Under the pieces are notes generated by a model, which saw only the letters and a program-made list of their open reading frames with translations, did not search any database and had not been told where the DNA came from. Below are positions 32,007 through 64,000 of a stretch of DNA of 64,000 nt, one piece after another. The position numbers and the translations under genes were made by a program. Each line of letters begins with the position of its first letter. Positions within the stretch are counted from its first letter, which is position 1. Origin of the DNA: Pseudomonas allokribbensis (GTDB lineage: Bacteria > Pseudomonadota > Gammaproteobacteria > Pseudomonadales > Pseudomonadaceae); the NCBI RefSeq assembly GCF_014863605.1, contig NZ_CP062252.1, positions 6,425,501-6,489,500 on the forward strand, read 5' to 3'.

Positions 32007-33103
32007 ACAGACTCAAGCACTTCATCGCGCCCGCGCTTTGTGCGGCACTGCTGAGCGGCGCCGCGCACGCCGAAGAACGCACCCTGCGCGTCTACAACTG
32101 GTTCGACTACATCACCCCCAAGGCACTGGAAGATTTCAAGGCGCAGAACAGTCAGACCAAACTGGTCTACGACATCTTCGACACCAACGAAGCACTGGAG
32201 GCCAAGTTGCTGACCGGCAACTCCGGCTATGACGTGGTGGTGCCGTCCAACGTGTTCCTGGCCAAGCAGATCGAGGCCGGGGTGTTCCAGCCGCTGGATC
32301 GCAGCCAGTTGCCGAACTGGAACCACCTCGATCCGAAACTGATGAAGCTGATCGAGGCCAACGACCCGGGCAACAAGTTCGCCGTGCCTTACATGTACGG
32401 CACCATCCTGATCGGCTTCAACCCGGCCAAGGTCAAGGCTGCACTGGGTGACAACGCGCCGGTGGACAGCTGGGACCTGATCTTCAAGGAGGAGAACATC
32501 AGCAAGCTCAAGCAGTGCGGCGTCGCCCTGCTCGACTCGCCATCGGAGATCCTGCCGCTGGCCCTGCAACACCTCGGCCTCGACCCCAACAGCAAGAACC
32601 CGGCGGATTACGCCAAGGCCGAAGCCTTGCTGATGAAGATTCGTCCGTACGTGACCTACTTCCATTCGTCCAAATACATGGCCGATATCGCCAACGGTGA
32701 CATCTGCGTCGCGGTCGGTTATTCGGGCAGCTTCTCGCAAGCCGCCAACCGCGCCAAAGAGGCGAAGAACGGCGTGGTGGTCGACATGCGCCTGCCGAAG
32801 GAAGGTGCGCCGATCTGGTTCGACATGCTCGCCATCCCGAAAGGAGCGAAGAACCCGCAGGACGCCTACACCTTCATCAACTACCTGCTGCAACCGCAGG
32901 TGATCGCGCCGGTCAGCGACTTTGTCGGTTACCCGAACCCGAACAAGGACGCCACCGAACATGTCGATCCGGCAATCCGCAACAACCCCAACCTGTACCC
33001 GACGGATGCGGCGATGAATACGCTGTACACCCTGCAACCGTTGCCGCGTGATGCAGAACGGGCACGCACCCGGGCGTGGACCAAGATCAAGTCCGGCACC
33101 TGA
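32003..33103 (+). CDS. Polyamine ABC transporter periplasmic binding protein (PotF/SpuD type)
   Basis: 366 residues with signal peptide (about 1-23, ending AHA) and the PotF-type start of the mature protein, LRVYNWFDYITP. Binding residues of the form NWFDY, SNVF and GDICVAVGYSGS are in the expected places. Overlaps the deacetylase gene by ATGA, so the two are coupled. No permease or ATPase genes follow, so it must share a membrane complex encoded elsewhere or work as a scavenger. A terminator lies 17 bp after the stop. Confidence 0.93.
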
Positions 33104-33120
33104 AACGTTCCGCCCCACCA

Positions 33121-33146
33121 AGACCCGCCTCCGCGGGTCTTTTTTT
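33121..33146 (+). terminator. Terminator after the polyamine pair
   Basis: AGACCCGC / GCGGGTCT stem, loop CTCC, followed by a run of Ts. Confidence 0.95.
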
Positions 33147-33191
33147 GCCTGCAAGATCTATGTACCGCCGCGTGCCGTGGCCGGAATTTTA

Positions 33192-36100
33192 ATGTGCCGG
33201 TTTTCCCCCATGGACACGACCATGACTGAACCTGCCGCCGCCACTACGCCCAGCGTTTCCCCTCCCTTGCTGAAACAGAGCCGGCTGGTCGAACTGACCG
33301 GCCGGGGCTACTCGCTGCATCAAGTCGCCTCGGCGCTGTTGCGCGAAGCACTGATGAAAAGCCATCCCGACCAACACATCGATCCGGATCGCACGATGCT
33401 CGCGACGCCTCTGCGCGAAACCGATGCCACACAGAACGCCACCGGGGTCTTTGCCTTCGAATCCCTGACCCATGCCTTTATCCAGCACTGCTTTAACAGA
33501 ACCACGGCCGATTACATCGAAGGCGAGCACTTCCTGACCCGCACACCCGACGCCACTCCGCCCATCCTCCTGCCGGTGAGCATGGACGACGTCACCTCGC
33601 TGGTGAACGACCTTGCACCGTTTCTGTTCCTCGAATACCAGCAGCGCCAACTCGATTACTGGAATGAGTCCGCCGGCACCCAGCCGCGCTGGCAAGAGCT
33701 GTCCGACCTGTTGTGTTCGGCCGCGAATGTGCAGACGGCCAGTGGCTGGGATGTAGACGAGTGCGCACTGGCGCGATTTGTCGCTCAGCATCCGGATCGG
33801 GCAGAACGCTCGACAGTGAACAGCGATTTCAGCGGGCTGAAAGCCTGCCTGATGGACATCGACCTGGTTGACGGCAAGGACAGCACGCACCTGCTCATTG
33901 CCGGCGCACTGGTGCTGACTGCCACCGTCAAACAGCGGCAACGGATCCTGATGTACACCGTTGCCGATGGCTATGAGTCCTTCGAGTCGCTGGTCGCGCT
34001 GGGCGAAACATTGCCACAGCGACTCGATCCCGAGCTGTCCGGGCGCTCCCTGAAATGGCGCCTGATCGAACCCGAAGGGCATATCTTCGACGCCGTTGCA
34101 CAGGCGCTGATCAGCAATCAGCTCGGTGCGATCGCGGCACTGGACCCCGCCAACCAGTCGATCAGTGCCCAGGCCTCCCCCGCAAGACAGAGCCGCGGTC
34201 GTTTCAATCCGCTCGAACGAGCCCGGCTCGACCAGTTGGAAGAGGCCATTCCCGATTGGCTGCAAGCCGGCTCCCTCCATGATCTGCAGGACTACAGTCG
34301 CTACATTGCCGAGCTCGGCACCTTGCGTGACGACGTCGAGAAGGGTGTTTTCAGAGATGACGACATTCCCCTGATCAAGCCCTACGCCGAACGCCGCATG
34401 TGCGAAGCAATCATCGCCGACAAAAGCGCCGAGGGCGCCGCCGAACTGCCTCTGGAACACCTGCGGATCAGTGTGACCAACAGCCTCGAAACCGGTGGCT
34501 TCACCCTGCCCAATCCATTTGACCGAATACACGAGACCCTGGGTGAGTTCGCCCTGCAAAACGCCCCGCCCTACCAAGCCACGATCGCCTTCGATAATGA
34601 CCGAGCCGTACCTGCCTGGCTGACTGTGGACTTTCTCACCACAATCGCGGAAAAGGTCGACATCGGCGGTCATTACCCGCAACTGATCAAACGCGCACTG
34701 ATTGATGACCCGATCCGGGCGGCCGAGCAAAAGACCCGCTACATGCGCCAGCTGCCGACACTCCTGCCGATGCTTGCACTGGAATGCAAGCTCAAGCACC
34801 AGGGCGACGTCGATCAGCGGGGTTATGACTACGTCTGCCAATTGATGGATGCCATCACCCGCAAACTTCCAACAGCCGAACACTCGGTGACGATCCGTCC
34901 GTTGGCATTCGTCCCTCGCCGCCGCTTGAGCCGGCGTTCGGACGTTGTCGCCAACATGTTCATCATCTGTCCGCGAGACCATACCCAGGGTCCTTGCCTG
35001 TTGTACCGGCCGCTGCTGGACACCCCGTTGATGCAGTTCGCCTCTCTGCAAAACCTGATGTACGCGCTGTATCAGGATGGCGAACTGCGCAATTCGGTAT
35101 TGGCCTGGCTGGGCAGTGCAGCACTGAGTTTCGAGTACTCGCAGTACGCCTTCCCGGTCGGCCTGCCCTCGCCGTGGATCGTCACTCAATTGGCCACCGA
35201 ACCGTTCATGCACCTGGATCTGACAGGCCCGATCGCACTGGAAAACGCCCCCCTCGGCGGCGACATCCTTGCCTCGCTGTACACCGCCAACAGTCAGGCG
35301 CTGGTCGAACTTGCGAACCGCCAGTCGCAGTCCAACAGCGAACGACGCTGGGCGCTTCTGGCGGACAGCGGCTGGGCGATGTTCAGCGTTGCTGCGAACT
35401 TCATGAGCGGCGCGGCGGGTACCGCCGTCTGGGTCTGGCAAACCATCACGCAGATCCAGCAGGCGATTGATGCCAATGAACACGACGACACCCTCGTGGC
35501 CTGGCAATCCACCGCCGATGTTCTGCTGACGCTCGGCATCATCCTGACCCAACGCGTCGTGGCGCGACGCAACCGCTCGTGGCTGCCGCACCAGAAGGAA
35601 TCCCGCGAAACGGCCCGACTGTCGCCGGAGAAAGAGGAGTCCGCACCAGAAGTCACACCGTCAGTCACGCTCGACCCGGTTGCCATCACTGGCGAGGTGC
35701 CTGCCGCGCATCTCACCCAACTCGAGCAAGGGACACTGCTGCGACCCGACACCAGCGCACGCTTCATCGCGATGCTCGACCGCTTCAAGATCGCCACACC
35801 TGACTTGAGCGGGAAACAGGCCTCACCAGTCACTCACCTGTACACCCTCGACGGCAAGACCTGCGCCCGGGTCGGTACGCGCTGGTTCCAGGTGATCGCC
35901 CGGGCAGACGAGCCGGTGCATATCGTCGATCCGGCCGATCCACTGCGTATCGGCATGGCGCTGACATACGACGAGACTGCCGGGCAATGGCACTGGGACC
36001 CGAAACTGCGCTTGCGCGGCGGCATGCCGAAAAGCCGGATCGAGGCGTTCCGCCGCTCCAAAAAGCAGTCAATGGAGGCTGCCTGGACTGAGCTGGAGCA

Positions 36101-37817
36101 ATTTGAAGCACACGAAACAGAGGCGAAAACACAACTGCTGCGAGCGCTGGTGGCCCTTCCACGGGACACCAGCGAAGCCGGCTTCGAGCACTCCGCATCC
36201 GTCTATCTGGGCAGGGCCACGAAGCTGGGCAATGAGTACACCCAGGCGCTGGACCAACTCGAAAACTGGCGTCTGGCGGGTGGCGGTGGCTCGGTACACC
36301 AGGCCAGACTGATGAGCCTGACCCTGGGTCAGCACCGCTGTTTCGGCTCGTGGCTGCGGGTGAAAATGCGGATGTACGCCAAGACCACACAGATCTTTGT
36401 CGACAGCGCGAACCAACACACACTGGTACCACGCAAGCAACAGATCGAAATCGCCACCGTCGCCACCGCGTTGAGCGACGAAATGATCACCACCCTGCAA
36501 ACCCTGGATCGCTCGCTCCAGATATTGAACAGCCATTCGGCCAAGGCCAGAGAAGTGGCCACGAGGCTGGAATTGCTGCTGCCAGACTTCAACACACTCG
36601 ATCTCAAGGCCAATGAAATCGGCATGTCCTACGAGCGCTGTGTGGAGGAGAAGCCGGGAGCCGCCATGAACGCCGCCCGCGCCGCGATCGGGATCATCAC
36701 GGCCACGGCTGCCGATGCCAGTCATGAGCTGATCCTGCTGAGTAAAACCGCGGTGATTGCAGATGGACAGCTGGCGCGGATCGAACGTTTATCGCAGTGG
36801 AACGATCTCTTCGCCAGCCTCGGTGAACGCGTGGAGCAATTGCCTGCGGCCCATCCCGGCCAGTTCGTCCAGGCCAGGCTCGACAGGGTTCGCGAGCTGA
36901 TCGGCGAGTTTCATGAAGTGGCCCGCGAACGCCTGACCACAGAATTGCCCGAACCGGAAGAACGACCCGCCCCCGTCAAGTCCCGGCCGCAGCCTTCAAC
37001 GTCGCAGCCGAAAGTGAAGGTGAGCAAAAGTCGTCCACGCCCCGAAACAGGTGAGTCAGCCCCCATGGCCCAGAGCGGCGAGTCGGAGGCCGAGACATCG
37101 TTCGTCAAACTCACCGCGCAAAGACCCGAACCGACGGCGCCCGCCGATGACGAGGATATTGTTTCAGCGGCAATGGCGCTTGAAGCGAACATCGAGAGCT
37201 TCAACAGGAAAACCCGCGAGGACGCCAAGCGACCGGGGCGTATTCCCGCTGACATCCGCGACATGTTCGAACAGCAAGTCGAACGCCTCAAACAAATGGC
37301 CATCGACGTCGACAGCGCGATCACCCGAAGAAAAAATGCCAGGAAGGATCCTTGGCCCATTGCCTCCCTCATCCCGAACCTGCGCGAAGGCGCAACCCGC
37401 ACCCACGCCGACGGCATTGCGACCTACGCGACCATGCTTAAACAACGCAAACCTCGGGAAACCTATTTCCACTGGCTGCACGACAACGGGCAGGTCAACG
37501 TGATCAAGGACCCACGCGGACGCATTCGTACCCGGCATCGCGGGGACTACTTTCAGGAGTACCGGATTCTCGACAAGGCCAACGCAAACAAACCGCTATG
37601 GGTCGCGCACTTTCATTACGACCAGCTCGGGGATGCGGATGAGCTGTACACCATTGCCCATCTGAAATTCGCCGATGCGTATCTGCAAACGCTGGATGAC
37701 AAAACCCGCCAGACACTGGACACCTTCGACGCCGTCGACAATGCGCTGCGGCGTATCGTCGATCCGCAGGTGCGCGACCTGTTCCTCACCACAGGCCGAC
37801 GCTCGACCGAAAGATGA
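33192..37817 (+). CDS. Giant dermonecrotic-toxin-like protein (DUF6543-type)
   Basis: About 1541 residues, one frame throughout. No signal peptide. The middle part around residue 585 (VVANMFIICPRDHTQGPCLLYRPL, then MQFASLQNLM) resembles the dermonecrotic/DUF6543 toxin N-domain found in large Pseudomonas proteins. Two hydrophobic stretches lie at about 730-755 and 775-790 and could insert into membrane. A long Ala/Glu/Arg-rich helical stretch and a Pro/Glu-rich linker (about 1250-1310) follow, ending in a separate domain of about 120 residues. The start is uncertain: 33192 has GGAA upstream, but 33210 or 33222 are possible. No immunity gene is evident. The stop abuts the convergent MocR stop with no spacer. 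Confidence 0.75.
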   Translation: MCRFSPMDTTMTEPAAATTPSVSPPLLKQSRLVELTGRGYSLHQVASALLREALMKSHPDQHIDPDRTMLATPLRETDATQNATGVFAFESLTHAFIQHCFNRTTADYIEGEHFLTRTPDATPPILLPVSMDDVTSLVNDLAPFLFLEYQQRQLDYWNESAGTQPRWQELSDLLCSAANVQTASGWDVDECALARFVAQHPDRAERSTVNSDFSGLKACLMDIDLVDGKDSTHLLIAGALVLTATVKQRQRILMYTVADGYESFESLVALGETLPQRLDPELSGRSLKWRLIEPEGHIFDAVAQALISNQLGAIAALDPANQSISAQASPARQSRGRFNPLERARLDQLEEAIPDWLQAGSLHDLQDYSRYIAELGTLRDDVEKGVFRDDDIPLIKPYAERRMCEAIIADKSAEGAAELPLEHLRISVTNSLETGGFTLPNPFDRIHETLGEFALQNAPPYQATIAFDNDRAVPAWLTVDFLTTIAEKVDIGGHYPQLIKRALIDDPIRAAEQKTRYMRQLPTLLPMLALECKLKHQGDVDQRGYDYVCQLMDAITRKLPTAEHSVTIRPLAFVPRRRLSRRSDVVANMFIICPRDHTQGPCLLYRPLLDTPLMQFASLQNLMYALYQDGELRNSVLAWLGSAALSFEYSQYAFPVGLPSPWIVTQLATEPFMHLDLTGPIALENAPLGGDILASLYTANSQALVELANRQSQSNSERRWALLADSGWAMFSVAANFMSGAAGTAVWVWQTITQIQQAIDANEHDDTLVAWQSTADVLLTLGIILTQRVVARRNRSWLPHQKESRETARLSPEKEESAPEVTPSVTLDPVAITGEVPAAHLTQLEQGTLLRPDTSARFIAMLDRFKIATPDLSGKQASPVTHLYTLDGKTCARVGTRWFQVIARADEPVHIVDPADPLRIGMALTYDETAGQWHWDPKLRLRGGMPKSRIEAFRRSKKQSMEAAWTELEQFEAHETEAKTQLLRALVALPRDTSEAGFEHSASVYLGRATKLGNEYTQALDQLENWRLAGGGGSVHQARLMSLTLGQHRCFGSWLRVKMRMYAKTTQIFVDSANQHTLVPRKQQIEIATVATALSDEMITTLQTLDRSLQILNSHSAKAREVATRLELLLPDFNTLDLKANEIGMSYERCVEEKPGAAMNAARAAIGIITATAADASHELILLSKTAVIADGQLARIERLSQWNDLFASLGERVEQLPAAHPGQFVQARLDRVRELIGEFHEVARERLTTELPEPEERPAPVKSRPQPSTSQPKVKVSKSRPRPETGESAPMAQSGESEAETSFVKLTAQRPEPTAPADDEDIVSAAMALEANIESFNRKTREDAKRPGRIPADIRDMFEQQVERLKQMAIDVDSAITRRKNARKDPWPIASLIPNLREGATRTHADGIATYATMLKQRKPRETYFHWLHDNGQVNVIKDPRGRIRTRHRGDYFQEYRILDKANANKPLWVAHFHYDQLGDADELYTIAHLKFADAYLQTLDDKTRQTLDTFDAVDNALRRIVDPQVRDLFLTTGRRSTER

Positions 37818-39371
37818 TTAACTGCGCCAGACTTCGCGCAAGCGGGCCAGAGCCGACTCGATCGCCGGCTCCGGCACCGCCGCAAAACCCAGCACCAGAC
37901 CGGCGCGCCGATCGATCGGCGTCGTCGAGTCCGGCAGCCAGTACTTGCTCAAGCCATGGACTTCCACCCCGACGCTGGCGGCCTGTTCGATCAATTGCTG
38001 TTCGCGGGCCACGCTGTCGACCGCCACCGTCAAATGAAGTCCGGCGGACACGGCCGGCAGTTCGCCGACACCCGCCAAACCCTGGGGCCAACCATTGATG
38101 AGCGCATTGCGCCGGCTGAGTGCAGCACGGCGCATCCGCCGGATGTGCCGCTGAAAGTGCCCGGCCGCCATGAACTCGGCCATCACCGCCTGGGTGCTCA
38201 CCTCGGAATGCCGGACATCCACCGCGCGCCGCTGTGCAAAGGCCTCCACCAACCCCGGCGGCAACACCAGATAACCCAGGCGCAGCGCCGGGAACGCGAC
38301 TTTGCCGAAGGTGCCGACGTACAAGACACGACCCTGGCGGTCGAGCGCAGCCAGCGGAGCCAAGGGGGCGCCGGTGTAGCGATACTCGCCGTCGTAATCG
38401 TCCTCGACGATCCAACCCCCGGTGCGCTCGGCCCAGGCCAGCAATTCCAGGCGTCGCGCCAGGCTCATCACCACCCCTGTCGGGTATTGATGAGACGGCG
38501 TGACATAAGCCACACGGCAATCTTCGGCGGCGGCCAACGCTGCGCAATCGATGCCCTCCTCATCCACCGCAATGCCGTGCAATCGACCACCGGCCAATGC
38601 GAACGCATGACCCGCTGCGCGGTAGCCGGGATTCTCGATGCCGACCCCGGCGCCTGGCTCCACCAGCAACTGTGCACAAAGGCTGATTCCTTGCTGTGCG
38701 CCACTGGTGATCACAATTTGCTCAGCCGAGCACTGCATGCCGCGCGAACTGCGCAAATAGGCAGCGATCAGTCCACGCAACCGCGCATCGCCCGCCGGGT
38801 CGCCGTAACACAGTTGCTGCAAATCGGGTTTACGCCAGAACGCCGCATTCAGCTTGGCCCAGACGTCGAACGGGAACAGATCGAACGCCGGAACACCCAC
38901 CCTGAAAGCCCGTGGCGGACCACTCGGCGGCGTAGGCAAATGGTTCTGTTCAAGCCGCTGCATCGCACCGCTGTGGATAACTTTGCTGGATAAATCCCCA
39001 GTGGAATCGACCGATTTTGTGGATAAGGCTGTGGGTAAGCCTGTTGAAAACCCTGTGGATACTTTTGTGGATAGTTTTTTCGTCGGTGTCGCCGATTGGG
39101 GCAACTGCGCCACATAAGTACCGTCCCCGACCCGCCCTTCGATGAAACCTTCGGCATACAGCTGATCGTAGGCGCGCACCACACTGTTGCGGGAAATCGT
39201 CAATGCCGCCGCCAGATCGCGACTGGCCGGCAGGCGTGTGCCGCTGGCCAGGCGCCCGTCGAGCACCCGCAGGCGCAAGGCCTGATAGAGCTGACGGCTC
39301 AGGCCTTTGCGGCGGTCGAGCTCAATGCCGGCAGGGTTGAACGGCAGCGACAGCGTGGTCGAATCGGGCAT
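37818..39371 (-). CDS. MocR-type (GntR-aminotransferase) regulator
   Basis: 517 residues. N-terminal GntR winged helix (about 20-90, with GTRLPASRDLAAALTISRN), a Ser/Thr-rich linker (about 95-140), then a fold-type-I aminotransferase domain (about 150-515). The PLP lysine is in the motif VGTFGKVAFPALRLGY and the aspartate in EDDYDGEYR. Divergent from the PaiB-GNAT-GNAT operon over 92 bp, which is the usual target layout for MocR proteins. The linker is unusually encoded by 12-bp repeats that match DnaA boxes (see the repeat at 38972-39074). Confidence 0.93.
   Translation of the reverse strand: MPDSTTLSLPFNPAGIELDRRKGLSRQLYQALRLRVLDGRLASGTRLPASRDLAAALTISRNSVVRAYDQLYAEGFIEGRVGDGTYVAQLPQSATPTKKLSTKVSTGFSTGLPTALSTKSVDSTGDLSSKVIHSGAMQRLEQNHLPTPPSGPPRAFRVGVPAFDLFPFDVWAKLNAAFWRKPDLQQLCYGDPAGDARLRGLIAAYLRSSRGMQCSAEQIVITSGAQQGISLCAQLLVEPGAGVGIENPGYRAAGHAFALAGGRLHGIAVDEEGIDCAALAAAEDCRVAYVTPSHQYPTGVVMSLARRLELLAWAERTGGWIVEDDYDGEYRYTGAPLAPLAALDRQGRVLYVGTFGKVAFPALRLGYLVLPPGLVEAFAQRRAVDVRHSEVSTQAVMAEFMAAGHFQRHIRRMRRAALSRRNALINGWPQGLAGVGELPAVSAGLHLTVAVDSVAREQQLIEQAASVGVEVHGLSKYWLPDSTTPIDRRAGLVLGFAAVPEPAIESALARLREVWRS
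38972..39074. repeat. Array of DnaA-box-like 12-bp repeats inside the MocR gene
   Basis: TTATCCACA-like 9-mers on the minus strand recur at 39066-39074, 39054-39062, 39042-39050, 39030-39038 and 39018-39026, exactly 12 bases apart, and again at 38985-38993 and 38972-38980. Two (39018, 38972) are perfect DnaA boxes, three differ at one base, two at two. The first five encode the linker repeats LSTK, VSTG, FSTG, LPTA, LSTK. The last perfect box falls in another reading frame (VIHS), so the DNA motif is kept apart from the peptide. Confidence 0.8.
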
Positions 39372-39421: not shown

Positions 39422-39463
39422 AGCCTGCCTACGATGCAGGCATTCGCCAAGGAAAATTTCTCC

Positions 39464-40087
39464 ATGTACACGCCCCGCGCCTTTGCCATCGACGACTTGT
39501 CCCAACTGCACGAACTGATCCTCGCCACCCGCCTCGCCATTCTGGTGACTCACGGCGAACAGGGCTTGCAGGCCAGCCATGTGCCAGTGCTGCTGCATCG
39601 TGAACAAGGCCCGAACGGCACGCTGTACGGGCATCTGGCCAAGGCCAATCCACAGTGGAAAGACCTGCGCGACGGCGCCGAGGCCATGCTGATTTTTCCC
39701 GGTGCCGATGCCTATGTAAGCCCGGGCTTTTATCCGAGCAAGGCCGAGCACGGCAAAGTCGTGCCGACCTGGAACTACGTTGCCGTGCACGCCTACGGTC
39801 ACGCCGAAACCTTCAGCGATGGCGGTCGTCTGCTGGACATCGTCAGCACCCTCACCAATCGCCATGAGGCCGGCCGCGCCCAGCCCTGGTCGGTCGACGA
39901 TGCACCGGCCGATTACATCGACGGCATGCTCAAGGCCATCGTCGGGTTTGCCATTCCGATCGACCGTCTCGAAGGCAAGCGCAAGCTCAGCCAGAACCGC
40001 AGTCCCGAAGACATCGCCGGCGTGCGCGAAGGCCTGGCCGCCAGCCCCGACTTCAACGATCAAACCCTCGCTCACTTGATGCGTTAA
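39464..40087 (+). CDS. PaiB-type FMN-binding protein
   Basis: 207 residues, FMN-binding split-barrel of the PaiB (PF04299) family, with AYVSPGFYPSK, the HGKVVPTWNY loop and VGFAIPIDRLEGKRKLSQNR near the end. The name negative transcriptional regulator comes from Bacillus PaiB and may not reflect the direct role. AAGGAAA lies before the ATG at 39464; an ATG at 39434 is open but lacks a site. First of a three-gene operon with two acetyltransferases. Confidence 0.92.
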   Translation: MYTPRAFAIDDLSQLHELILATRLAILVTHGEQGLQASHVPVLLHREQGPNGTLYGHLAKANPQWKDLRDGAEAMLIFPGADAYVSPGFYPSKAEHGKVVPTWNYVAVHAYGHAETFSDGGRLLDIVSTLTNRHEAGRAQPWSVDDAPADYIDGMLKAIVGFAIPIDRLEGKRKLSQNRSPEDIAGVREGLAASPDFNDQTLAHLMR

Positions 40088-40097
40088 GGAAATCACC

Positions 40098-40544
40098 ATG
40101 AGTCAGATCGACATCCGTCCGGTCAGCGCCGCCGATCACGCGGCCTGGCTGCCGCTGTGGCAGGCCTACCTGCGCTTCTACAACACCGAGTTGCCGGACG
40201 CCGTCAGCCAAAGCACCTGGCAGCGTTTTCTCGACCCGAACGAACCGACCCACGCCGCGCTCGCCTGGGCCGACGGCAAAGCGGTGGGCATGGTTCATTT
40301 CATCTACCATCGTTCGAACTGGAGCATCGAAAACTCCTGCTACCTGCAAGACCTGCTGGTGGAGCCGCAAACCCGTGGCACCGGCGTCGGTCGTCTGCTG
40401 ATCGAACACGTCTACGCCACCGCCAAGGCCGACGGTTGCTGCAAGGTGCACTGGCTGACCCACGAAACCAACGCCACCGCGATCCAGCTCTACGAGCGCA
40501 TCGCCGAGCGTCCGGGTTTCATCCAGTTTCGCAAAGCCATTTAA
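40098..40544 (+). CDS. GNAT acetyltransferase
   Basis: 148 residues. The acetyl-CoA loop motif VEPQTRGTGVGRLLIEHV is intact (motif A of GNAT). AAGGAA Shine-Dalgarno. The spacing to PaiB is 10 bp and to the next GNAT 12 bp. By analogy with Bacillus paiAB, a polyamine acetyltransferase role is possible, but substrate is unproven. Confidence 0.88.
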   Translation: MSQIDIRPVSAADHAAWLPLWQAYLRFYNTELPDAVSQSTWQRFLDPNEPTHAALAWADGKAVGMVHFIYHRSNWSIENSCYLQDLLVEPQTRGTGVGRLLIEHVYATAKADGCCKVHWLTHETNATAIQLYERIAERPGFIQFRKAI

Positions 40545-40556
40545 GGAGCCACGCGC

Positions 40557-41228
40557 ATGACGATTTCTCTCGCCGACTGGAAAGGCGTGCCGCCGCCCTC
40601 CACCACCCTGATCGAAGGCCGCTTCATCCGCCTGGAAAAACTCGACCCGGCGCGCCACGGCGACGACCTGTTCAACGCCCTGCAAGGCCCGGGCGCCGAC
40701 CCGAAACTCTGGGACTATTTGCCCTACGGCCCGTTTCCGGAGCGCAGTGCCTTCAATGACTGGCTGAACAACCATGCTGCCCACAGCGACCCGTACTTCT
40801 TCAGCGTCATCGACCGCGCCAGCGGCCAGGTACAAGGCATCCTCAGCCTGATGTCGATCGTCCCGGCCCAGGGCCGCATCGAAATCGGCCACGTCACCTT
40901 CGGCGCACCGATGCAACGCTCGCCGAAAAGCACCGAAGCGGTCTACCTGCTGGCCAAGGAATCCTTCGCCCTCGGCTACCGTCGCCTCGAATGGAAATGC
41001 AACAACGGCAACGCCCGCTCCAAATACGCGGCCGAGCGGTTGGGTTTCAGCTTCGAAGGTGTGTTCCGCCAGCACATGGTGGTCAAGGGCCAGAACCGTG
41101 ATACCGCGTGGTACTCGATCCTGGACTCGGAATGGCCGGCGATTGCGGCCGGGTTCGAGCGCTGGCTGAGCGACGAGAATCAGACGGCTGAGGGGCAGGT
41201 GAAAGGCTTGGTTGAGTGCCGCGGCTGA
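40557..41228 (+). CDS. GNAT acetyltransferase, RimJ/RimL-like
   Basis: 223 residues, a typical RimJ/RimL-type domain, with AVYLLAKESFALGYRRLEWKCNNGNARSK and the GFSFEGVFRQHMVVKGQNRDTAWYSIL end. It is distinct from the gene before it. Possible targets are amino groups of peptides or small amines. Last of the PaiB operon. Confidence 0.88.
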   Translation: MTISLADWKGVPPPSTTLIEGRFIRLEKLDPARHGDDLFNALQGPGADPKLWDYLPYGPFPERSAFNDWLNNHAAHSDPYFFSVIDRASGQVQGILSLMSIVPAQGRIEIGHVTFGAPMQRSPKSTEAVYLLAKESFALGYRRLEWKCNNGNARSKYAAERLGFSFEGVFRQHMVVKGQNRDTAWYSILDSEWPAIAAGFERWLSDENQTAEGQVKGLVECRG

Positions 41229-63268: not shown

Positions 63269-64000
63269 TCAGGCCGCTTGAATCCGACAGCCGGCCAATC
63301 CTGCCTGCAACTCGTCGATCGCCTGCGGCTGGTCGAAAATCAGCTCGATCCGTGAATCCTTGCGCCACTCACTAGGCTGCCAGTCCAGTTTGGTGTTATC
63401 CAGCGCATTGGCTGACCGCCAGTCGTCCTGGCTGTGGATAACCAGCTTCGCCCGGCGCCAGTGCAGAGATTCCAGCCACTGAGTGATGCGAATCACGTCA
63501 AACGTCTGGCTTGGGTGCCAGCGCCAGCCGATGCTCCAACCGCCCTCCTGCGCCTGACTCAGGCAAATCGGTAAAGCCGGATCGCTCCAGACGGCCGGCA
63601 TCTGCGCCAGCCCCTTGGGCACGATCAACTTATCCACACCCGCTTGCGCTTGAGCTGTCACACCCGGTAATTCGCTCAGGGGCAACGACGCCTGTTGTGT
63701 CCAGATCAGCCTGACCGGCGGTAGCTGGCGGACGATCAGCTCACGCTCGGATTCATCGAGGCTTTCTGCCTTGTTCAACACCAGCAGGCCGGCATTCGGG
63801 ATCGCCTCCTGTTGAGCCGGAGGCAGTGTCTTGCCCGCCACCAGTGCCTGGGCGTCCAGCACCAGAACGCAGGGCTGAACGGCGAGAACGCCTTGCCATG
63901 GCGCCTCGCTCAGTTGTTGCAGCAACTGCACCGGATGCCCCAATCCGGAAGGCTCGATGAACAGGCGATCCGGCTGAGACTTGCGCAATAAACGTCCCAG
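63269..64000 (-). CDS. CobW/COG0523-family GTPase, N-terminus outside window
   Basis: The visible 243 codons are the C-terminal part; the N-terminal Walker A lies beyond the right edge. [14 protein letters not shown] carries the Walker B-like EPSGLGHP motif, and NKAESL is the NKxD-type guanine motif. These proteins are metal chaperones, often for Zn. Two perfect DnaA boxes lie inside (63433-63441 and, on the other strand, 63630-63638). Confidence 0.85.

What the first reader, a model, noticed from the sequence alone, without database searches (positions are those of the whole stretch)
38972..39074. DnaA-box array built into the linker of a MocR regulator
Seven TTATCCACA-like 9-mers lie in 103 bp on one strand, the first five at a strict 12-bp pitch. 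Two are perfect DnaA boxes and three differ by one base. The five tandem units encode a Ser/Thr-rich protein linker, but the last perfect box is in a different reading frame, so the DNA word seems to be kept for its own sake. The cluster could titrate DnaA, as datA- or DARS-like loci do, or regulate the gene by initiator level. The simpler alternative is a coding minisatellite that happens to resemble the box.
Basis: partly seen in the sequence, partly recalled or inferred. Interest (0 to 1): 0.78.

Follow-up and report, generated by a model that had tools for sequence, protein, structure and literature searches.

The report
DnaA-box array inside a regulator gene
A row of binding sites for the protein that starts chromosome copying is written into the middle of a Pseudomonas regulator gene; its letters are kept far more strictly than the protein needs and they survive where the gene is lost, so it looks like a replication-control DNA element living inside a gene.

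Summary
Seven TTATCCACA-like sites lie on the coding strand of a MocR/PdxR-type gene (39371..37818, minus): two exact, three with one mismatch, two with two. Five stand at a strict 12-bp pitch; the last is out of frame. The coding-minisatellite alternative fails. In 93 Pseudomonas orthologues the row has five registers. Box codons show 0-4 third-position changes in 17 of 18 columns (control median 25; 12 of 200 controls are as low). The out-of-frame box keeps its letters while the residue changes. In three genomes where the gene is gone (two apparently independent losses) the row remains beside the same neighbours. So selection acts on the DNA. The 3-bp gaps match the tandem double box that E. 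coli DnaA prefers in vivo. The array holds this genome's only exact 12-bp-pitch pair. It lies 48-158 kb left of dnaA in 29 of 31 genomes measured, within an origin-centred excess of exact boxes (144 of 152 in the origin half). Most likely it binds a head-to-tail DnaA row and buffers free DnaA after initiation; local transcription control is the main rival. It is not shown to be datA or DARS: no IHF consensus, and it is coding. DnaA binding is untested.

The parts
37818..39371 (-). MocR/PdxR-type regulator gene (517 aa: GntR winged helix, linker, aminotransferase-like domain) that hosts the array
   Evidence: PF00392, PF00155; NCBIfam PdxR 427 bits, cut-off 320
39018..39074 (-). five-register tandem DnaA-box array, 12-bp pitch (9-bp box + 3-bp gap), in frame, encoding LST/VST/FST/LPT/LST
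   Evidence: five registers in 93 of 93 parsed array orthologues; kept without the gene in G043, G392 and, as four registers, G037
39066..39074 (-). register -4, CTATCCACA, 1 mismatch
   Evidence: <=1 mismatch in 86 of 93
39054..39062 (-). register -3, GTATCCACA, 1 mismatch
   Evidence: 1 mismatch in 67 of 93, 2 in 26
39042..39050 (-). register -2, TTTTCAACA, the weak middle box
   Evidence: 2 mismatches in 66 of 93, 3 or 4 in 18, 0 or 1 in 9
39030..39038 (-). register -1, TTACCCACA, 1 mismatch
   Evidence: <=1 mismatch in 88 of 93 while the residues vary LPT/LST/LSP/FST
39018..39026 (-). register 0, exact DnaA box
   Evidence: exact in 91 of 93
38985..38993 (-). TTATCCAGC, 2 mismatches, 13 bp before the last box; not consistently kept among orthologues
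38972..38980 (-). out-of-frame exact DnaA box (encodes V-I-H-S), 46 bp from register 0
   Evidence: present with <=1 mismatch in 78 of 93 (exact in 72), 46 bp from the row in 77 of the 78
39434..40087 (+). divergent FMN_bind_2 gene, neighbour
40098..41228 (+). two GNAT acetyltransferase genes (40098-40544, 40557-41228), the neighbours that stay beside the array where the regulator is lost

Best explanation
The array is a DnaA-binding DNA element that arose once inside the interdomain linker of a MocR-type regulator in an ancestor of the Pseudomonas branch whose named members here include P. fluorescens, P. putida and P. syringae records, and selection has held it at the DNA level since; the Ser/Thr-rich peptide is largely a by-product. 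Shown: DNA-level conservation, fixed register number, out-of-frame box, survival after gene loss, origin-proximal position. Inferred: DnaA binds it as a head-to-tail row, because the boxes are tandem with 3-bp gaps. Inferred, less certain: the locus works in replication control. It is copied soon after initiation, doubles a strong DnaA sink about 100 kb from oriC and lowers free DnaA, working with the many single boxes around the origin. That would be titration, possibly with nucleotide-state control. My odds: DNA element selected for DnaA binding about 0.9; replication control by DnaA buffering as its main role about 0.55.
For: (1) Box codons: TTA 2.2%, ACA 7.8%, TCC 12.4% of their family in the gene body, yet of 259 LST triplets in 93 linkers 114 read TTATCCACA and 62 CTATCCACA. 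(2) Parsimony on the gene-body tree: 17 of 18 box codon columns have 0-4 third-position changes and one has 7; 200 control columns have median 25, 12 of them 0-4. (3) Out-of-frame box: GTT for Val in 74 of 74 rows with VIH (6.2% in the body), and the next codon starts with A in 72 of 74 while coding S, N, R, T or K. (4) Five registers in 93 of 93, register 0 exact in 91; spacing to the out-of-frame box 46 bp in 77 of the 78 rows that have it. (5) Gene gone, row kept, in G037, G043 and G392 beside the same GNAT pair; between the sisters G043 and G392 the three strong boxes are 27 of 27 identical, against 57 of 75 and 87 of 100 in the flanks. (6) E. coli DnaA ChIP-seq finds double boxes 2-3 bp apart at 15 of 16 bound regions (PMC11317965, section 5). 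(7) 29 of 31 array genomes with gene and dnaA on one contig have it 48-158 kb left of dnaA. (8) 144 of 152 exact boxes of this genome lie in the origin half, P 1e-33.
Against: I found no DnaA binding, initiation or expression data for this locus in the library searched. One named orthologue of 80 (L180, a P. putida record) has lost the array with the gene intact, so it is not indispensable everywhere. The out-of-frame box is missing in 15 of 93. In G527 the row is weak (mismatches 2,1,3,1,1). In G029 the gene lies 1.33 Mb from dnaA and in G094 275 kb on the other side, so early replication is not absolute. No IHF consensus within 400 bp of the linker in any of 93. Array-less Pseudomonas also concentrate boxes near the origin (G078: 45 of the 50 places listed lie in the origin half, counted by hand), so the array is not needed for the general pattern.
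Confidence: 0.6

Rival explanations
1. DnaA-dependent local transcription control: a DnaA row on the array acts as a roadblock or operator for the regulator gene or for the adjacent FMN/GNAT operon, linking it to the cell cycle.
For: The array sits beside the GNAT pair also where the regulator is lost (three of three); in G043 it lies about 75 bp from the GNAT1 start. DnaA is a known transcription factor (PMC8203912, abstract start and passages).
Against: In this genome the array is about 300 bp inside the regulator gene and 360 bp from the FMN gene, not at a promoter. Its distance to GNAT1 differs strongly between genomes (about 75 bp in G043, 330 bp in G037, 1 kb here). Thirteen of 13 gene-less genomes with a more distant GNAT1 have no row within the 1.5 kb held on each side.
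Confidence: 0.25
2. Coding minisatellite: a repeated Ser/Thr-rich linker peptide whose codons resemble the DnaA box by chance or by recent expansion.
For: Five units are in frame and encode [LVF]-[SP]-T repeats; linkers are generally loosely constrained (general knowledge).
Against: Register number is fixed at five (93 of 93), codons are conserved far beyond synonymous expectation, one box is out of frame, and the row is kept without the gene.
Confidence: 0.03
3. Rare-codon pause: the cluster of rare TTA/CTA/ACA codons slows translation between the two domains to help folding.
For: The cluster lies between the DNA-binding and aminotransferase domains and uses rare codons.
Against: TCC is not the rarest Ser codon (TCA and TCT are rarer); of the out-of-frame box's codons only GTT is rare; the 9-letter word is kept, not just rarity; the row survives where the gene is gone.
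Confidence: 0.03
4. Binding site for a different protein that reads TTATCCACA-like words.
For: Binding was not tested here; other factors could use the word.
Against: TTATCCACA is listed as the P. putida high-affinity DnaA box (PMC4285127, passages); four exact copies lie in the last 350 bp before dnaA in this genome, where P. putida oriC is placed (PMC3056050, passage); the pitch fits DnaA double boxes.
Confidence: 0.07

Closest known systems
oriC-proximal DnaA-box clusters of Bacillus subtilis (Okumura 2012; not held; seen only through PMC5295017 passages)
   Same: DnaA-box cluster outside oriC, near the origin; deletion of all six in B. subtilis gives early initiation
   Different: Here the cluster lies in a coding linker, in a regular five-register tandem row conserved across a genus; no deletion data. 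[quoted passage not shown] subtilis
datA of Escherichia coli
   Same: Cluster of DnaA boxes away from oriC; its essential boxes have one directionality (PMC5742627 passages), as here
   Different: datA is non-coding and needs an IHF site; no IHF consensus here (0 of 93); about 100 kb rather than hundreds of kb from oriC (E. coli distance recalled); hydrolysis activity untested
DARS1/DARS2 of Escherichia coli
   Same: DnaA-box clusters that act on DnaA; a 3-bp-spaced double box occurs in DARS1 and DARS2 (Table 1)
   Different: IHF and Fis act at DARS2 (title and abstract start of PMC4245941); nucleotide exchange untested here
Double DnaA box (Stringer 2024, E. coli ChIP-seq, PMC11317965 section 5)
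   Same: Tandem boxes with 3-bp gap; often a weaker upstream and an exact downstream box
   Different: Five registers in a row instead of two, and intragenic
Origin-proximal DnaA-box enrichment and titration in E. coli (Olivi 2025, PMC12371093 abstract, passages and section 6)
   Same: Boxes concentrate around oriC beyond composition expectation
   Different: E. coli analysis is of scattered boxes; here there is also an intragenic array conserved across species
MocR interdomain linkers (Data in Brief 2016, PMC5026710 passages)
   Same: Linkers of 60 residues or more are tabulated, including entries with the code 9PSED (recalled as Pseudomonas)
   Different: The word 'repeat' does not occur in the text, and the passages I saw name no DNA-level constraint

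Membership tests
datA-like DnaA-inactivating locus | cluster of DnaA boxes outside oriC, essential ones in one direction | tested here: met
   (direction and cluster; which boxes are essential is untested)
datA-like DnaA-inactivating locus | IHF-binding site within the cluster | tested here: not met
   strict consensus WATCARNNNNTTR (recalled) absent from the linker and 400 bp on each side in 93 of 93; a degenerate site is not excluded
datA-like DnaA-inactivating locus | non-coding locus | tested here: not met
   inside an intact ORF in this genome; outside the regulator only where the gene is lost
datA-like DnaA-inactivating locus | promotes hydrolysis of DnaA-bound ATP | not testable with these tools
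   needs biochemistry
DARS | promotes ADP release from DnaA | not testable with these tools
   needs biochemistry
Origin-proximal DnaA-box cluster (B. subtilis type) | several DnaA boxes outside oriC, near the origin | tested here: met
   48-158 kb from dnaA in 29 of 31
Origin-proximal DnaA-box cluster (B. subtilis type) | removal advances initiation | not testable with these tools
   needs mutant
Double DnaA box | tandem boxes 2-3 bp apart | tested here: met
   (3-bp gaps); definition
Coding minisatellite | repeat number varies between relatives | tested here: not met
   five registers in 93 of 93; the departures seen are L180 (none) and the gene-less G037 (four)
MocR/PdxR regulator (host gene) | GntR winged helix plus aminotransferase-like domain | tested here: met

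The most novel reading that the evidence does not exclude
A replication-control locus shared by a large branch of Pseudomonas is hidden inside a protein-coding gene: a DnaA-nucleating array was inserted once into a permissive protein linker, has dictated that stretch of peptide by DNA-level selection ever since, and is retained as a free-standing element when the host gene is deleted. It would be the functional counterpart of datA or the B. subtilis clusters, acting as a tandem DnaA row without IHF.
Probability: 0.5. Interest if true: 0.8.

Novelty: new variant of a known kind. Interest (0 to 1): 0.72.

Why it matters
Whether chromosomal DnaA sites control initiation by titration is a live question; the 2025 E. 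coli paper says experimental evidence had been lacking (PMC12371093, abstract). This locus offers a clean test outside enterobacteria: all boxes could be removed by synonymous changes without touching the protein, in a genus where, for P. putida, a review reports no repression of dnaA by extra DnaA (PMC8203912, passage). It is also a clear case in which a DNA-binding-site array shapes a protein sequence and survives the death of the gene.

Tried and rejected
Rejected: coding minisatellite and rare-codon pause (see rivals). Tried without a clear result: IHF consensus search around the array (none in 93); array presence against total box number (array-less genomes also have many boxes, so no simple link). 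Array in other genera of the family: an array-specific pattern with up to 3 mismatches hit 1 of 106 other-genus genomes (G546, at 3 mismatches, not followed) and 6 of 13 same-genus genomes; of the seven same-genus misses, G028 and G113 are array-less, four (G297, G423, G446, G470) have regulator E-values like those of array-less orthologues but were not inspected, and G624 was not examined. Paper searches: no paper holds 'DnaA box', 'Pseudomonas' and 'MocR' together; the other searches listed no paper that I recognised as describing this array. I saw only titles and abstract starts of most hits, and the library lacks most subscription papers.

Rows dropped and limits: 9 of the 119 genomes were not fetched as orthologues (G012, G014, G027, G037, G043, G064, G075, G080, G118) and were examined later. 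Two of 110 loci (L077, L093) failed my linker parser and are not in the counts; both carry boxes. One search listed 100 of the 152 box places; the other 52 are taken to lie beyond 5.79 Mb because the list is ordered. In the parsimony count changes are counted only among rows with the commonest residue, so the box columns rest on 47 to 93 rows and columns with fewer rows can show fewer changes. In one search only three candidates per genome were scored, so absence of the regulator elsewhere in G392 rests on that and on the 8 kb read round its GNAT pair; for G037 and G043 twelve candidates were scored.

Full report
WHAT IS THERE. The gene on the minus strand at 39371..37818 encodes a 517-residue protein with a GntR winged helix and an aminotransferase-like domain, scored by NCBIfam as a PdxR-type MocR regulator (427 bits, cut-off 320). 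Divergent from it lie an FMN_bind_2 gene and two GNAT acetyltransferase genes. That context resembles the PdxW regulons described in PMC5320631 (pyridoxamine-phosphate oxidases plus RimI/RimL acetyltransferases; passages); that the FMN gene is such an oxidase is my inference. Between the two domains the coding strand carries seven DnaA-box-like 9-mers: five at exactly 12-bp pitch and in frame, a sixth weak one, and a seventh exact one in the +1 frame. The window has 14 sites with at most one mismatch against 4.46 expected, and five are in these 103 bp. In the whole genome (one contig, 6,565,027 bases, starting at dnaA) this is the only exact TATCCACA-N4-TATCCACA.

IS THE DNA WORD SELECTED? They keep the 9-mers. 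Of 119 genus genomes with a match, I fetched the orthologous locus from 110; 108 parsed. Ninety-three carry the array; fifteen have a short linker (41-46 residues) with no box of at most one mismatch. In the 93, registers are counted from the last tandem box: register 0 is exact in 91, register -1 has at most one mismatch in 88, register -4 in 86, register -3 has one mismatch in 67 and two in 26, and the middle register -2 is weak in most (two mismatches in 66, three or four in 18). The next register upstream has four or more mismatches in all 93, so the row is five long. At register -1 the residues vary (LPT 46, LST 24, LSP 13, FST 6) while the box distance stays at or below one mismatch in 88. 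Among the best 80 of 571 named relatives, including records titled P. syringae, P. putida, P. fluorescens, P. cichorii and P. fragi, 79 keep at least three boxes of at most one mismatch; one, L180, has none.

Codon use shows the constraint is not on the peptide. In the gene bodies TTA is 2.2% of Leu, ACA 7.8% of Thr and TCC 12.4% of Ser; of 259 LST triplets in the linkers, 176 read TTATCCACA or CTATCCACA. On a tree built from the gene body (linker excluded), 200 well-conserved degenerate control columns show a median of 25 third-position changes (mean 22.7). Twelve of the 200 controls have 0-4. Of the 18 box codon columns 17 have 0-4, and the middle Ser has 7. Changes are counted only among rows with the commonest residue, 47 to 93 rows per box column; in the six columns with all 93 rows the counts are 0, 3, 0, 1, 0 and 0. 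The out-of-frame box is the cleanest case. In the 74 rows with Val-Ile-His, Val is always GTT (6.2% in the body), and the next codon begins with A in 72, whether it codes Ser, Asn, Arg, Thr or Lys. It is present with at most one mismatch in 78 of 93, exact in 72, and 46 bp from the row in 77 of the 78, although the letters between diverge. Fifteen of the 93, all with 61- or 66-residue linkers, lack this last box but keep the row.

THE ARRAY OUTLIVES THE GENE. I searched 398 genus genomes for the regulator; 23 lack an intact close copy by my cut (best E above 1e-150). Their GNAT neighbour was then used as a landmark, together with three more genomes with weak or split matches (26 genomes). In G043 and G392 the regulator and the FMN gene give no match in the 8 kb round the GNAT pair, yet the five-register row stands there (mismatches 0,1,2,2,0 and 0,1,3,1,0). 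In G037 only pieces of the regulator remain, with a stop just before the row (read by eye), but four registers at 12-bp pitch remain (1,1,2,0). G043 and G392 share their flanks and are taken as sisters, so this is two apparently independent losses and three genomes, three of three keeping the row. An antisense ORF that the tool lists across the G043 row I take to be spurious. Between the sisters the three strong boxes are identical at 27 of 27 positions, all five differences in the row fall in spacers or weak registers, and the flanks are 57 of 75 and 87 of 100 identical. That sample is small, so I treat it as support rather than proof. G080, G433 and G449 have split reading frames and also keep the row, in G080 weakly (2,1,5,1,0); these could be sequencing errors. 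G527, with a 64% regulator, has a weak row (2,1,3,1,1). Thirteen other gene-less genomes have only a more distant GNAT neighbour (61-66%) and no row in the stretch held; six had no usable landmark. In the tree of 109 proteins the array-bearing ones and L180 form one clade (94 taxa, support 0.85), with the 15 array-less orthologues outside, so one gain and one seen loss within an intact gene.

WHERE IT IS. In 31 array genomes in which gene and dnaA are on one contig, 29 have the array 48-158 kb upstream of dnaA on the left arm; G094 has it 275 kb on the other side and G029 1.33 Mb away (three of the distances, for G036, G062 and G084, about 92-97 kb, were worked out by hand with the contig lengths). 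This genome has 152 exact TTATCCACA against 16 for the reversed word; 144 lie in the origin-proximal half (P about 1e-33). Excess over the reversed word holds in 80 of 80 genus genomes counted. It is not tied to the array: G078 has no array in its orthologue, and 45 of its 50 listed boxes lie in the origin half (hand count). For comparison, E. coli is reported to have 32 exact boxes (PMC11317965, section 5) and an origin-proximal enrichment of looser boxes (PMC12371093, section 6).

HOW IT PROBABLY WORKS. E. coli DnaA in vivo prefers two tandem boxes 2-3 bp apart; 15 of 16 ChIP-seq regions have such a pair, often a weak upstream and an exact downstream box, and adding one base to the gap hurts binding at the site tested. 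The array is that arrangement extended to five, with the exact box downstream. datA's essential boxes also point one way, read as head-to-tail DnaA contacts (PMC5742627 passages). From this I infer a cooperative DnaA row. Being copied early, it would double a strong sink soon after initiation, as the titration argument in PMC12371093 runs for origin-near boxes. The review PMC8203912 (passage) says raised DnaA did not repress dnaA in P. putida, which would leave more room for chromosomal buffering; this is an argument, not evidence for this locus. The main rival is local transcription control, because the row stays near the GNAT pair. Nothing here measures binding or initiation.

MEMBERSHIP AND NOVELTY. 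It meets the description of an origin-proximal DnaA-box cluster and of a multiple double box. It fails two tested features of datA (IHF consensus, non-coding). The biochemical features of datA and DARS could not be tested. No paper in the held library has DnaA box, Pseudomonas and MocR together. I therefore call it a new variant of a known kind: an initiator-box array carried in, and shaping, a coding sequence.

Noticed in passing
L126 (this genome C1:663530-664105), L325-L330: A second conserved DnaA cluster: between an ABC ATPase gene and a short-chain dehydrogenase gene on the right arm, about 615-700 kb from dnaA; the six other genomes fetched share the double box TTAACCACA-3bp-TTATCCACA (this genome has a two-mismatch version), and 5-7 boxes of at most one mismatch were seen in each of the seven stretches. 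Candidate DARS/datA counterpart; no strict IHF consensus.
   Followed up: partly
G000 whole chromosome: Exact DnaA boxes: 152 against 16 for the reversed word, 144 in the origin half, many of those looked at lying inside long ORFs.
   Followed up: partly
G003:C1:1483051, G015:C1:28829, G007, G009 and others: A recurring double box TATCAACAGAGTTATCCACA, about 29-34 kb from dnaA on the right arm in the two genomes placed (G003, G015).
   Followed up: no
L180: A P. putida-titled orthologue (82% identity) has lost every box and the LST peptide but keeps the regulator frame: a natural array-minus control.
   Followed up: partly
L095 and L197 linkers: These two linkers are 95 residues long and carry an extra in-frame stretch (with GASLLA) before the array; from memory it resembles translated REP-type repeat DNA.
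   Followed up: no
G029:C1:4375067-4376611: In this close relative (95% identity) the gene lies 1.33 Mb from dnaA rather than about 100 kb; rearrangement or assembly effect.
   Followed up: no
window 33048-37817: A 1589-residue ORF with a ToxA_N (dermonecrotic toxin N-terminal) domain match ends next to the last base of the regulator's ORF, convergent with it.
   Followed up: no
window 63433 and 63630: Two exact DnaA boxes on opposite strands 197 bp apart inside one ORF (63269-63988, minus).
   Followed up: no
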